Below are positions 29,468 to 34,627 of a DNA stretch of 42,648 nucleotides, piece by piece. The translations under genes and the position numbers were made by a program. This stretch comes from Candidatus Poribacteria bacterium (GTDB lineage Bacteria > Poribacteria > WGA-4E > WGA-3G): contig JAJEAG010000046.1 in assembly GCA_022824265.1 (NCBI GenBank), forward strand, positions 1-42,648, in the 5' to 3' direction. The first letter of the stretch is position 1. Every line of letters begins with the position of its first letter. The notes below the pieces were generated by a model. That model was not told the origin of the DNA. It saw nothing but the letters and a program-made list of their open reading frames with translations, and did not search any database.

Positions 29468-31099
29468 ATGACATACCGCAACATATTAGACAAAATCAGA
29501 CTTGCATTTCCACAACCGGTGTCTGATACAATCCATGATTCATACTTTATTCATTCTATGATGCGTGCATTAGACCAAGTAGACGATCTCAAAACACATC
29601 TTCCATTCCTCGGAAATATGGTTGAAACGGATTTTGATACTGCGAAAAAGACAACAATAGAAGATTCCATGTCCACGGTTGAAGAGGTAACCACAGACCT
29701 TGTAGGGTATCTACAGGGAATGACGATCTTCGGTCACCCTCGCACACAGCAGAACGTCGTTGCTCCGACAACAATCCCCAGCATGATAGGTGTTCTCCTT
29801 GCTTCTCTCCACAATCCTAATCTTGCTTGGGATGAATTCAGTCGACTTGTAGCATTAGCGGAAGTTGAGGTAATTGGTATGACATCACAATTGATCGGAT
29901 ATCAACCAGAACAAGCAAGTGGTGTGTTTACCTTTGGGGGAACAGGAACTACACTTTACGGTGTGAAAATGGGAATAGAGAAAGCTTGTCCGGGTTCAAT
30001 ACAACATGGAATACCTGATGATGTTGTCGTTTTTGTTTCAGATGCAGGACATTATTGTGCTGCCAATATAACCGGTTGGCTTGGTATAGGTACTGACAAC
30101 CTAATTACAATTCCAACAACAGTTGAAAACGAGATAGACCTTGAAATACTGGAACAGGAACTAAGACATGCACTCACAGATGGAAAAAAGATCGCAGCAA
30201 TTATCGCTACATTAGGCACAACGGACGCATTCGGTTTGGACAACTTAATGAAAATTGTGGTCATGCGAGAAACTCTCGTTGATGAGTTTAAACTTGATTA
30301 TCATCCACATATTCATGCTGATGCTGTCATTGGATGGGCATGGTCTGTTTTTAACCACTACGATTTTGAAAGTAACCCTTTAGGGTTTCGTCCGCGTACT
30401 GTACGTGCTTTGGCTGGTGCTTGTAGACGTATACGAGATCTTCATCTTGTAGATTCTGTGGGTATTGATTTCCACAAAACAGGTTTCACACCATACATTT
30501 CCAGTCTTGTGCTTGTAAAGGATAAGAATGATCTTGATCGCTTGAAACGCACACGGGAACAGATGCCTTATCTCTACCATTTTGGACAATACAAACCGGG
30601 TATGTATACACTTGAAACCTCAAGGTCTGGTACAGGTCCTCTTGCTGCACTTGCTAATCTCAAATTATTTGGAGAAGAAGGGATGCGTGCAATATTGGGT
30701 CATATTGTTGAAATGACACAACTATTGCGAGAACATCTGGAGGGACACGAAGGCACCACCGTACTAAACAAAGCAAATTTTGGGACTGTCACACTATTCC
30801 GCGCATATCCCGTCGGTGTGGATACATTTGAAATTAAGCGACAAGAATTTGAGGACGATGCCTTTAAGGATAGTTTACTCGCACATAATTCATATAACCA
30901 AGAAATCTTCAACTATGTTAATTCTGAAGCTATGGAAGGACGAGGTGTTTTCATATCAACAACAGATTGTTATCGGCACACCTCTTATGGTGAACCTATT
31001 GTTGCCCTGAAGTCATTTATCCTGTCCCCATTTGTTGATGAAGAGGATGTTGAAACGGTAGTAGAAAAGGTATTGGAAGCAAGAGAACACATGGCATAG
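29468..31099 (+). CDS. PLP-dependent group II amino acid decarboxylase
   Basis: This 543 aa fold-type I PLP enzyme belongs to the aromatic-L-amino-acid/tyrosine/glutamate decarboxylase group. Hallmarks are SDAGHYCAANITGWLGIG, the cofactor-binding HIHADAVIGWAW and the Schiff-base Lys337 in DFHKTGFTPY. It should remove the carboxyl group of an amino acid to give an amine; the exact substrate is not fixed by motifs. An N-terminal helical swap domain (about 1-90) is typical of the family. GAGG lies 8 bases before the ATG. It stands alone and is followed at once by a minus-strand tmRNA-like RNA gene. Confidence 0.85.
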   Translation: MTYRNILDKIRLAFPQPVSDTIHDSYFIHSMMRALDQVDDLKTHLPFLGNMVETDFDTAKKTTIEDSMSTVEEVTTDLVGYLQGMTIFGHPRTQQNVVAPTTIPSMIGVLLASLHNPNLAWDEFSRLVALAEVEVIGMTSQLIGYQPEQASGVFTFGGTGTTLYGVKMGIEKACPGSIQHGIPDDVVVFVSDAGHYCAANITGWLGIGTDNLITIPTTVENEIDLEILEQELRHALTDGKKIAAIIATLGTTDAFGLDNLMKIVVMRETLVDEFKLDYHPHIHADAVIGWAWSVFNHYDFESNPLGFRPRTVRALAGACRRIRDLHLVDSVGIDFHKTGFTPYISSLVLVKDKNDLDRLKRTREQMPYLYHFGQYKPGMYTLETSRSGTGPLAALANLKLFGEEGMRAILGHIVEMTQLLREHLEGHEGTTVLNKANFGTVTLFRAYPVGVDTFEIKRQEFEDDAFKDSLLAHNSYNQEIFNYVNSEAMEGRGVFISTTDCYRHTSYGEPIVALKSFILSPFVDEEDVETVVEKVLEAREHMA

Positions 31100-31116
31100 A
31101 TATTGAACAGAATAAA

Positions 31117-31201
31117 TGGAGGTGGCGGGAATTGAACCCGCATCCGATGGAAATTGAAAACAACCACGTTTTCTGTCCACCGTCGAAATCCTTTCACCCC
31201 C
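31117..31201 (-). ncRNA. tmRNA-like RNA reduced to the tRNA-like domain
   Basis: On the minus strand the 85-nt sequence begins GGGGGTGAAAGGATTTCGAC, the hallmark of tmRNA 5' ends, and finishes with a T-arm GCGGG-TTCAATT-CCCGC and CACCTCC-A. Acceptor pairing GGGGGTG/CACCTCC includes a G-U at the third pair, the alanine identity element. In place of the tag reading frame and pseudoknots there is only a capped helix: CGGTGGA/TCCATCG, then GAAAAC-GTGGTT-GTTTTC. CCA is not encoded. The order is not that of permuted two-piece tmRNA. It may be a functional tRNA-like domain or a deleted ssrA copy; the true ssrA may lie elsewhere. Confidence 0.7.
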
Positions 31202-31208
31202 ATGCCAG

Positions 31209-31214
31209 ATAATA
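31209..31214 (-). promoter_or_regulatory. -10 box for the tmRNA-like RNA
   Basis: TATTAT on the minus strand ends 7 nt before the first G of the RNA, the normal spacing to a start site. A TTGAAC lies 14 bp upstream, shorter than usual for a -35. Confidence 0.35.
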
Positions 31215-31930: not shown

Positions 31931-32047
31931 TTACTATAGTAGGACATAAAATATAATGTTAATATTACACATATATTTATGTCTTTATATTATAGTTCAA
32001 TTTATGATGAATGTTTATTTAAATATAACCAGAGAGGAGTATATTCT

Positions 32048-34627
32048 ATGAAAAAGACCTTGTTTAGTTTGTATTTGATGTTTTTTCTTTTCTCAGCACT
32101 TTTTTTACCTAATATTTTTGCACAAGACTCACCACAGTGGCACTTACCAGAAGGTGCAACAAAACGACTTGGTAAGGGATGGATATATGAAATTCAGTAT
32201 TCACCAGATGGTACTCGGTTTGCTGCTGCAGGCTCCACAGGAGTTTGGATTTATGATACTGCAACAGATAAAGAGATAGCTCTATTTTCGGGATATGGGT
32301 ATGCAGTTTCAGCACTCACCTATTCTCCTGATGGGAAGATACTGGCAGGGGGTAGTATAGATGGAACAATCCGTTTGTGGAACCCTGATACTGGAGAAGT
32401 CGTACATACGCTTGACCGACATTGGGCGAGTGTCCGTAGCCTTGCTTTTAGTACAGATGGTTCTATACTTGCAAGTGGTAGTAGAGACAGAACTGTCAGA
32501 ATATGGAATCCTGAAACAGGTGAACTTCTGACGACACTGAGAGGACATACAGATGGATTAAACTGTATAGCAATTAGTCCAGATGGTAATACTCTTATCA
32601 GTGGTGGAAGAGACGATACTATAGTTGTTTGGGATCTAAATTCCGGAGAACAAATACAGACCCTAACAGAACATCGTGATAACGTCCAAAGTGTTGTGTT
32701 TAACCCTGATGGAAAAACCTTTGCCAGTGGAGATCTGAATTCTTTAATCCATATATGGGATACAGAAACATGGACAGTCAAACGGACATTAACAGGACAT
32801 ACATCCCATATCCATCATTTGGTGTATAGTCCTGATGGTAATATTCTTGCAAGTGGAAGTGAAGATGACACCGTCCGGTTATGGGATGCAGCCACAGGTG
32901 AACACCATATTACGCTTGCTGGACATACCGCAGATGTGTATGGTCTTGCGTTTACACCGGATGGAAGTGTACTTACAAGTGGTGCATGGGATGCAACAAT
33001 GCGGTCATGGAATCCAATTACTGGTGAACATCTGGAAACAATCACTGGACATACCGATGCAGTTGTGAGTGTTACTTTCAGTGCCGATGGAACAATTCTT
33101 GCCACGCGTAGTTGGGATAAAACTATCAGACTGTGGGATGCTGACACTGGACAACTACGACATACCCTCATTGGTCACCAAGATGATGTGGATGTTGTGG
33201 TTTTCAGTCCTGATGGCAGAACACTCGCGAGTGGTAGCCAAGATAATACCGTTCGTTTATGGGATGCAATCACCGGTGAACATATAAAGACTTTAAGAGG
33301 ACATTACTCTTATCTGATAAGTCTCGCGTTCAGTCCTGATGGGAGTATTCTTGCAAGTGGTAGTGAAGACGACAGCATTCGTTTATGGAATGTTTCCACA
33401 GGAAGATATATCGGAGGGTTATGGGAACATGAAGCAGGTGTAGAAACATTAGCCTTTAGTCCTGATGGTACAATGCTGGCAAGTGGAAGTCGTGATGATA
33501 AGATTATCTTGTGGGATCTTGAAACACGCGATCCAATACATACTATCAGTGAACATGAGGATGATGTTTGGACTGTTGCTTTCAATCCGGAGGGAACACA
33601 ACTTGCAAGTGGTGGAAGAGATACTGTATCTTTATGGGATGTTGCTACTGCTGAACTATTACAGACATTTCGCAGACCGATTATAACGGATATAAACGTA
33701 TCTACACCAGAGGAATTATCTGGAGATACTCCCACTGACATTCCAGCAAATGCTACAAGTATTGTTTTCAGTCCAGATGGGAAAGTTTTAGTAACAGGTA
33801 GTTATGATGCCACTATACGTTTATGGGACATCGAATCAGGTGTACAACTTGCCACACTTGACGGACATACATTTTCTATAACAAGTGTTGCGGTCAGTCC
33901 GAATGGTTCAACGATAGCAAGTGGAAGTTTCGATGGAACTGTCCTACTTTGGGCATTCCCACTTCCAATGAGTGTCTCTCAAGTTTTAACAGTGTTCGCA
34001 GATGTGAACAAGGACGGAACTCTGAATATTTTGGATGTGGTACTTGTTGCATCAAATTTCGGTCAAACTGGAGACAATCCGGCAGACATCAACGGTGATG
34101 GGGTCGTTGACTTGTTAGATCTTTATTTGTTAGCGAATGCACTCAATCACATTGGATCGGCTCCTGACATACAGACCGTATCAAATGGGCAGCTAACACA
34201 GTCGCAGGTACAACAGTGGTTGAATTTAGCAAACCAACAGTCATCACAGTTAGTTTTTACCACAGAAACAGATTTACTTACATTCCATCGGGGTATACAG
34301 GTTTTGGAACAGATATTACAATCTTTAATTCCAACGACGACTGCATTACTACCTAACTACCCTAATCCCTTTAATCCTGAAACATGGATACCGTTTCAAT
34401 TAGCATCACCATCTGATGTAAGTATTACCATCTTTTCAGCGGATGGATCAGTTGTCCGAACATTAGAATTAGGACATCATGCTGCGGGTTTATATCAGAA
34501 CCGTAGCAGTGCTGCCTATTGGGATGGAAAAAATGAACTCGGTGAATCTGTATCAAGTGGCGTGTATTTCTACACACTCACTGCAGGTGATTTTTCCTCT
34601 ACTCGCAAAATGTTAATTTTGAAATAA
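32048..34627 (+). CDS. Secreted WD40-repeat protein with dockerin-like and C-terminal sorting-type domains
   Basis: This protein of about 859 aa has a signal peptide (MKKTLFSLYLMFFLFSALFL, cleavage after NIFA). It has fourteen WD40 repeats counted by the xxSPDG turn, probably two seven-bladed propellers, with an insert between the 12th and 13th. It has a dockerin-type pair of calcium loops (DVNKDGTLNILD and DINGDGVVDLLD) and a C-terminal FlgD/Ig-like domain containing NYPNPFNPETWIPF and ending SSTRKMLILK. The last part resembles type IX or related sorting domains. It should be an extracellular or surface binding protein. The start is ATG at 32048 behind AGAGAGGAGT; an upstream in-frame start at 31979 would spoil the signal peptide. 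Confidence 0.85.
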   Translation: MKKTLFSLYLMFFLFSALFLPNIFAQDSPQWHLPEGATKRLGKGWIYEIQYSPDGTRFAAAGSTGVWIYDTATDKEIALFSGYGYAVSALTYSPDGKILAGGSIDGTIRLWNPDTGEVVHTLDRHWASVRSLAFSTDGSILASGSRDRTVRIWNPETGELLTTLRGHTDGLNCIAISPDGNTLISGGRDDTIVVWDLNSGEQIQTLTEHRDNVQSVVFNPDGKTFASGDLNSLIHIWDTETWTVKRTLTGHTSHIHHLVYSPDGNILASGSEDDTVRLWDAATGEHHITLAGHTADVYGLAFTPDGSVLTSGAWDATMRSWNPITGEHLETITGHTDAVVSVTFSADGTILATRSWDKTIRLWDADTGQLRHTLIGHQDDVDVVVFSPDGRTLASGSQDNTVRLWDAITGEHIKTLRGHYSYLISLAFSPDGSILASGSEDDSIRLWNVSTGRYIGGLWEHEAGVETLAFSPDGTMLASGSRDDKIILWDLETRDPIHTISEHEDDVWTVAFNPEGTQLASGGRDTVSLWDVATAELLQTFRRPIITDINVSTPEELSGDTPTDIPANATSIVFSPDGKVLVTGSYDATIRLWDIESGVQLATLDGHTFSITSVAVSPNGSTIASGSFDGTVLLWAFPLPMSVSQVLTVFADVNKDGTLNILDVVLVASNFGQTGDNPADINGDGVVDLLDLYLLANALNHIGSAPDIQTVSNGQLTQSQVQQWLNLANQQSSQLVFTTETDLLTFHRGIQVLEQILQSLIPTTTALLPNYPNPFNPETWIPFQLASPSDVSITIFSADGSVVRTLELGHHAAGLYQNRSSAAYWDGKNELGESVSSGVYFYTLTAGDFSSTRKMLILK

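What the first reader, a model, noticed from the sequence alone, without database searches (positions are those of the whole stretch)
31117..31201. tmRNA reduced to its tRNA-like domain, with no tag reading frame
The 85-nt minus-strand sequence has the tmRNA 5' signature GGATTTCGAC, a T-arm and an acceptor stem with the alanine G3-U70 pair. The whole mRNA-like part and pseudoknots are replaced by a closed 6-bp stem with a GTGGTT loop. A TATTAT lies 7 nt upstream. If expressed, it would be an alanine-chargeable RNA without a tag template, possibly a competitor or regulator in trans-translation. If not, it is a neat ssrA deletion.
Basis: partly seen in the sequence, partly recalled or inferred. 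Interest (0 to 1): 0.8.

Follow-up and report, generated by a model that had tools for sequence, protein, structure and literature searches.

The report
Conserved tagless mini-tmRNA beside full tmRNA
A Poribacteria lineage carries, next to its normal ribosome-rescue RNA (tmRNA), a second conserved 85-nt version that keeps only the tRNA-like end and has no tag message; similar mini-RNAs turn up, mostly unannotated, in many phages, so a tag-free branch of ribosome rescue, or an inhibitor of it, may be widespread.

Summary
Window 31117-31201(-) scores 66 bits against the Rfam tmRNA model with the whole middle deleted. It folds as acceptor stem (G3-U70), D-like loop, T-arm, and a 7-bp H2 helix closed by a 6-bp hairpin. 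It is not a decayed ssrA. The genome has a separate intact ssrA (tag ADQELALAA) next to smpB. The short form occurs in 10 of 18 genomes of the genus (Candidatus Poribacteria), in 9 of them at the same place beside a convergent PLP-decarboxylase gene. It is 92% identical between species where four-fold-degenerate sites of the neighbouring gene are 48% identical, with compensatory changes in three of its four helices. Scanning viral contigs gave about 90 distinct relatives: G3-U70 in every credible one, strongly covarying H2. They lie in tRNA arrays, beside capsid or portal genes, and in isolated Streptomyces and Pontimonas phages. Two Patescibacteria genomes also pair a full ssrA with a mini form. 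Precedents are mycobacteriophage DS6A and organellar tmRNAs. Most likely it is an alanine-charged, SmpB-binding tRNA mimic that competes with ssrA and moves stalled nascent chains without a tag. Expression and mechanism are untested.

The parts
31117..31201 (-). mini-tmRNA gene, 85 nt to the discriminator A; CCA not encoded
   Evidence: RF00023 66.4 bits; model R1 104.6 bits; 10 genus members
31195..31201 (-). acceptor stem, 5' strand GGGGGUG (G3 of the G3-U70 pair at 31199)
   Evidence: sequence, fold; identical in all 10 relatives
31118..31124 (-). acceptor stem, 3' strand CACCUCC (U70 at 31120)
31182..31191 (-). tmRNA D-like loop signature GGATTTCGAC (GGATTCGAC in 8 of 10 relatives)
31176..31182 (-). 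H2 helix, 5' strand CGGUGGA
   Evidence: fold; pairs 98.6% kept, two with changes on both sides
31145..31151 (-). H2 helix, 3' strand UCCAUCG
31156..31173 (-). closing hairpin GAAAAC-GUGGUU-GUUUUC in place of the mRNA-like domain and pseudoknots; loop is GUGGUU in 9 of 10 relatives, AUGGUU in one
31125..31141 (-). T-arm GCGGG-UUCAAUU-CCCGC
   Evidence: UA/CG compensatory pair in relatives
31209..31214 (-). TATTAT, possible -10 element (weak here; a better TTGAYA...TATMCT promoter stands at this place in several relatives)
   Evidence: promoter comparison
29468..31099 (+). convergent PLP-dependent decarboxylase gene (PF00282), conserved neighbour ending 17 bp from the 3' end of the mini-tmRNA
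   Evidence: Pfam; synteny in 9 of 10

Best explanation
31117-31201(-) encodes a functional second tmRNA reduced to its tRNA-like domain. Shown: a tmRNA-type acceptor/T-arm/D-loop fold closed on H2, conserved with compensatory changes, alongside an intact ssrA-smpB operon. Inferred: RNase P and CCA addition mature it; AlaRS charges it through G3-U70; SmpB and EF-Tu carry it into the empty A site of ribosomes stalled at mRNA ends; it accepts the nascent chain but offers no tag template. It thereby diverts a share of stalled ribosomes (and SmpB) from ssrA tagging, leaving the chain with an added alanine and no degradation tag. In phages the same design would blunt or redirect host trans-translation.
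For: Rfam match over model 1-374 with the middle absent and fold. Ten of 18 genus genomes carry it, beside the same convergent gene in 9. Identity 0.92, against 0.48 at four-fold sites of that gene and about 0.64 for force-aligned upstream DNA. 99% of cells paired, 11 double-change cells against 3.7 shuffled. Intact ssrA tag ADQELALAA and adjacent smpB. In viral contigs the search pattern did not ask for an acceptor stem, G3-U70, H2 pairing or the upstream GG, yet 91 distinct sequences have a full acceptor with G3-U70, H2 positions 1-6 pair in 83-97% (41-47% on shuffling), GG precedes TTCGAC in 89 of 91 and the discriminator is A in 90 of 91. A TLD-only molecule like that of phage DS6A inhibits tmRNA in E. 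coli (PMC4131195, PMC11915505). TLD fragments with SmpB act as tRNA mimics on ribosomes in vitro (PMC3929946).
Against: No transcript, charging or SmpB-binding data. Promoter evidence in this genome is weak and no terminator was identified. Not found in 8 of 18 genus members, so dispensable. The inhibition reported for DS6A-like RNA did not need alanine, which fits SmpB titration as well as peptidyl transfer.
Confidence: 0.6

Rival explanations
1. Template-free alanine tailing. Ala-mini-tmRNA with SmpB adds one or more alanines to chains on stalled ribosomes without any mRNA, marking them by an Ala tail, as RqcH does with tRNA-Ala, instead of by the ssrA tag.
For: A TLD fragment with SmpB supports polyalanine synthesis without template in vitro (Shimizu and Ueda 2006, cited in PMC3929946). 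G3-U70 is universal among credible members although SmpB titration alone would not need charging. The genome has an NFACT/RqcH-family protein.
Against: Only an in vitro precedent with an artificial fragment. Nothing shows repeated rounds in vivo.
Confidence: 0.22
2. Pure decoy: the RNA titrates SmpB (or AlaRS) and never needs to accept a peptide.
For: DS6A-like TLD inhibits tmRNA whether or not it can be charged, perhaps by titrating SmpB (PMC4131195).
Against: Universal G3-U70 with discriminator A across phages whose other acceptor pairs vary freely argues that alanylation matters.
Confidence: 0.3
3. A charged Ala donor for a non-ribosomal reaction (Fem-like ligase, lipid or peptide aminoacylation).
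For: No anticodon and no template, G3-U70 kept.
Against: The tmRNA D-loop signature is kept, and the conserved neighbour is a decarboxylase, not a transferase. Phage copies lie beside capsid, portal, helicase and tRNA genes.
Confidence: 0.05
4. Non-functional relic: an ssrA copy that lost its middle, an attachment-site remnant or an assembly artefact.
For: The acceptor stem is identical to that of the genus's own ssrA, so an origin by internal deletion is likely.
Against: Ten separate assemblies, compensatory changes, identity far above neutral sites.
Confidence: 0.04

Closest known systems
Canonical tmRNA, ssrA (Rfam RF00023)
   Same: Acceptor stem with G3-U70, D-like loop GGNTTCGAC, H2 start, T-arm; Rfam calls it tmRNA at 66 bits
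   Different: No mRNA-like domain, no tag frame, no pseudoknots; about 85 nt instead of about 351; a second gene beside a full ssrA
Mycobacteriophage DS6A TLD-only tmRNA (Mao et al. 2009; PMC4131195)
   Same: [quoted passage not shown] a similar molecule inhibits tmRNA in E. coli
   Different: The present case is a bacterial chromosomal gene conserved across species
Mitochondrial tmRNA without mRNA-like region (RF02544; Jacob 2004, Hafez 2013)
   Same: tRNA-like domain without tag frame, thought to work with an imported SmpB (PMC11915505)
   Different: There it is the only tmRNA and usually permuted; here it is an extra, non-permuted gene
CDS-less plastid tmRNA of Mallomonadaceae (PMC11915505)
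   Same: Gene of about 65 bp without tag frame
   Different: Organellar reduction, not a paralogue
Artificial TLD fragments used with SmpB in crystals and in vitro (5' and 3' ends joined by a UUCG loop, PDB 2CZJ; described in PMC3929946)
   Same: The same architecture: TLD closed by a short hairpin
   Different: Laboratory constructs; here the design occurs in nature

Membership tests
tmRNA (RF00023), tRNA-like domain | 7-bp acceptor stem with G3-U70 and discriminator A | tested here: met
   10 of 10 genus members; 91 distinct phage sequences
tmRNA (RF00023), tRNA-like domain | GGNTTCGAC D-like loop and 5-bp T-arm with TTCRANT loop | tested here: met
   one extra T in the D-like loop in this genome and G009
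tmRNA (RF00023), complete molecule | mRNA-like domain with resume codon and tag frame ending in a stop | tested here: not met
   middle of the model absent; only H2 and a 6-bp hairpin lie there
tmRNA (RF00023), complete molecule | pseudoknots PK1-PK4 | tested here: not met
TLD-only (CDS-less) tmRNA, as DS6A and organellar forms | TLD kept, closed on H2, no tag frame | tested here: met
TLD-only (CDS-less) tmRNA, as DS6A and organellar forms | a partner SmpB is present in the cell | tested here: met
   smpB at G000:C42:51550-51963; 15 of 18 genus genomes
TLD-only (CDS-less) tmRNA, as DS6A and organellar forms | alanine charging, SmpB binding, effect on trans-translation | not testable with these tools
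   needs biochemistry
tRNA-Ala | anticodon arm with an Ala anticodon in a 7-nt loop | tested here: not met
   no ARAGORN call; loop GTGGTT closes a tmRNA-type H2

The most novel reading that the evidence does not exclude
Mini-tmRNAs are a widespread class of natural template-free rescue RNAs. With SmpB they append alanine to nascent chains on stalled ribosomes without an mRNA, giving a third fate beside ssrA tagging and RqcH tailing, used by many phages and by a few bacteria that keep the normal tmRNA as well.
Probability: 0.22. Interest if true: 0.93.

Novelty: new variant of a known kind. Interest (0 to 1): 0.8.

Why it matters
tmRNA without a message was known from organelles, where it is the only copy, and from a single mycobacteriophage. 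A bacterial chromosomal copy held under selection beside a working ssrA-smpB operon, and a large set of mostly unannotated phage relatives, turn that curiosity into a testable class. They bear on an open question: what a ribosome does when an alanyl-TLD-SmpB complex enters without a template. They also suggest that many phages may interfere with, or re-use, host trans-translation. The genes are easily missed: ARAGORN misses this one, and the main tmRNA database reports rejecting large internal deletions and truncated forms (PMC11915505).

Tried and rejected
Decayed ssrA: rejected, full ssrA present and short form conserved. Loss of the normal tmRNA in mini carriers: three carriers (G001, G004, G009) show no full ssrA, but they also lack smpB, which is adjacent where present, so a missing contig explains both. 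Loop GTGGTT pairing with the full tmRNA: no AACCAC/AACCAT in 16 genus ssrA genes. Poribacterial hairpin in viral contigs: no exact match, so a recent phage origin of this copy has no support; the acceptor identical to the genus's own ssrA fits an internal deletion of a duplicated ssrA. Most genome contigs pattern hits are 3' ends of ordinary tmRNAs or tRNAs without a matching acceptor and were discarded. Matches in cluster-K mycobacteriophages cover only the 3' part and may be attachment cores; not counted. DS6A record not in the phage collection; Mao 2009 not readable. MAFFT alignment A3 misplaces the 5' acceptor strand, so covariation of phage sequences was counted by anchors, not on A3.

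Full report
WHAT IS THERE. The 85 nt at 31117-31201 on the minus strand read as described. Rfam's tmRNA model matches 31114-31201 at 66.4 bits over positions 1-374 with the middle missing. ARAGORN finds nothing in the window. The RNA folds into acceptor stem, H2 with a stacked 6-bp hairpin, and T-arm; -34.8 kcal/mol, z -2.96. H2 is 7 bp, so the mRNA-like domain is replaced by H2 closed with a hairpin, not by the 6-bp stem alone.

IT IS AN EXTRA GENE, NOT A BROKEN ONE. The same genome has a full ssrA at C42:51168-51521 (193.5 bits), with tag ADQELALAA by ARAGORN, and smpB 28 nt upstream of it at C42:51550-51963. In the genus 15 of 18 genomes have smpB; the three without it (G001, G004, G009) are also the three mini carriers without a detected full ssrA, which a missing contig explains.

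CONSERVATION. Records of the same contigs are titled Candidatus Poribacteria. Ten of 18 genus genomes carry the 86-88 nt form; among the other genomes of the phylum (85 searched in all) only the weaker forms noted below were found. In nine it ends about 14-27 nt from a convergent PLP-decarboxylase gene (PF00282); in the tenth (G017) most of that gene is gone but the RNA stays. On a tree of the decarboxylase the carriers are clustered (3 changes against 5.5 shuffled), and the pair G012/G008, which falls outside the rest under midpoint rooting, lacks it; one gain and a few losses is the simplest account but is not proven. Over 36 species pairs the RNA is on average 91.6% identical, the decarboxylase 80.4%, its four-fold sites 48.1%, and the upstream flank 63.5% after forced alignment. 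Four pairs in H2, the hairpin and the T-arm show changes on both sides, 99.2% of cells are paired, and sliding the partners destroys this. The acceptor stem never varies within the genus, so it gives no covariation evidence there. The hairpin loop is GUGGUU in nine and AUGGUU in one, an unexplained conservation. A sigma-70-like promoter (TTGAYA or TTGAAA, 16-18 nt, TATMCT) stands 10-14 nt upstream in six relatives but is weak in this genome, G002, G004 and G009.

RELATIVES ELSEWHERE. With the acceptor checked afterwards, 91 distinct sequences form 7 of 7 pairs with G3-U70. The five 7/7 exceptions are two unrelated sequences (L288, L300) and three (L210, L243, L270) where, by inspection, the stem starts one base earlier and G3-U70 is restored. 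None of this was in the pattern. Pairs 4-6 of the acceptor vary freely while G3-U70 does not. H2 pairs in 95, 97, 89, 90, 92 and 83% at positions 1-6 against 41-47% on shuffling. GG precedes TTCGAC in 89 of 91 and the discriminator is A in 90 of 91. One of the 91 (L286, acceptor TTGGTAA) is doubtful. A covariance model made only from the ten Poribacteria finds nearly all of the tested viral ones at 28-56 bits, with ordinary tRNAs at or below about 23. The contigs are phage: nine have the gene before a major capsid gene, five before a portal gene, seven near a DnaB-like helicase gene (clusters, representatives identified); others lie in tRNA arrays (L163, L225, L262, L310). Isolated phages have it: Streptomyces phage LuckySocke between tRNA-Val and tRNA-Ser, unannotated, with close matches in GiJojo, pSt2308, BRock and Alone3, and Pontimonas phage phiPsal1 just before the capsid gene. 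Two Patescibacteria genomes carry both a full-length tmRNA match and a mini form: an Uhrbacteria genome (125 and 70 bits) and G328 (120 and 75 bits).

ORIGIN. The mini acceptor is identical to that of the genus's own ssrA and the core of the D-like loop (AGGATTCGACGG) is identical to that of two relatives' ssrA; no viral contig holds the Poribacterial hairpin. This favours duplication and internal deletion of the resident ssrA over a recent phage gift (inference).

MECHANISM. Shown: structure, selection, coexistence with ssrA-smpB. From the literature: the TLD binds AlaRS, EF-Tu and SmpB; TLD-SmpB mimics a tRNA in A and P sites; a TLD fragment with SmpB makes polyalanine without template in vitro (PMC3929946); a DS6A-like TLD strongly inhibits tmRNA, chargeable or not (PMC4131195; PMC11915505). 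Inferred: the mini-tmRNA is charged, enters stalled ribosomes with SmpB, accepts the chain and cannot offer a tag, so it competes with ssrA. Universal G3-U70 speaks for a role of alanine beyond SmpB titration. Whether one alanine or several are added, and how the ribosome is then freed, is open. The genome also has an NFACT/RqcH-family protein, so a second alanine-tailing route may exist.

NOVELTY AND LIMITS. Tagless tmRNAs are known from mitochondria, two plastid sequences and phage DS6A; a 2025 survey counts nine 'standard, no CDS' sequences and names two bacterial groups that may lack a tag. I found no description of a conserved bacterial paralogue or of a broad phage class, but only open-access papers could be searched. 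Transcription, charging and function remain untested.

Noticed in passing
L048:4885-4998 (G014) and L049:7925-7995 (G016): A different 71-nt element with the tmRNA acceptor stem and T-arm sequence but no TTCGAC loop; in G014 it lies inside a long inverted repeat followed by a T run (z -7.7), perhaps a mobile or regulatory element.
   Followed up: partly
L047:7792-7896 (G056): A 105-nt mini-tmRNA with a 6-nt T-loop on a 9.5-kb contig of another Poribacteria family; a nearby ORF matches a phage phosphoesterase family, so it may be a phage contig binned with the genome.
   Followed up: partly
L071:1414-1525; L361:1501-1639: Two Patescibacteria genomes hold a full-length tmRNA match plus a mini form; the first lies a few kb from apparent frr and glyS genes, the second near an apparent cysS gene, i.e. 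chromosomal (gene names by eye).
   Followed up: partly
viral loci L248, L252, L254, L263, L276, L293, L311, L235, L221; L330: In one phage group the mini-tmRNA sits just before the major capsid gene, as it does in Pontimonas phage phiPsal1; five other contigs have it before the portal gene.
   Followed up: partly
L269:5-85 and 1317-1396: One viral contig has two matches of the mini-tmRNA model 1.3 kb apart.
   Followed up: no
Streptomyces phage GiJojo PP725410.1:17025-17102: The mini-tmRNA is overlaid by an annotated hypothetical protein.
   Followed up: no
L206, L307, L309, L361: ARAGORN extends mini-tmRNAs upstream into longer tmRNA calls with improbable tag peptides.
   Followed up: no
L041 and L045 upstream of the mini-tmRNA: In G004 CRISPR-like repeats and in G004 and G014 a Cas1-like ORF (by eye) lie upstream, so the upstream side has been rearranged several times.
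   Followed up: no
window 31979-34627(+): 882-aa WD40-repeat protein with an apparent C-terminal sorting domain (by eye), 0.8 kb upstream of the mini-tmRNA; it varies in position among relatives.
   Followed up: no
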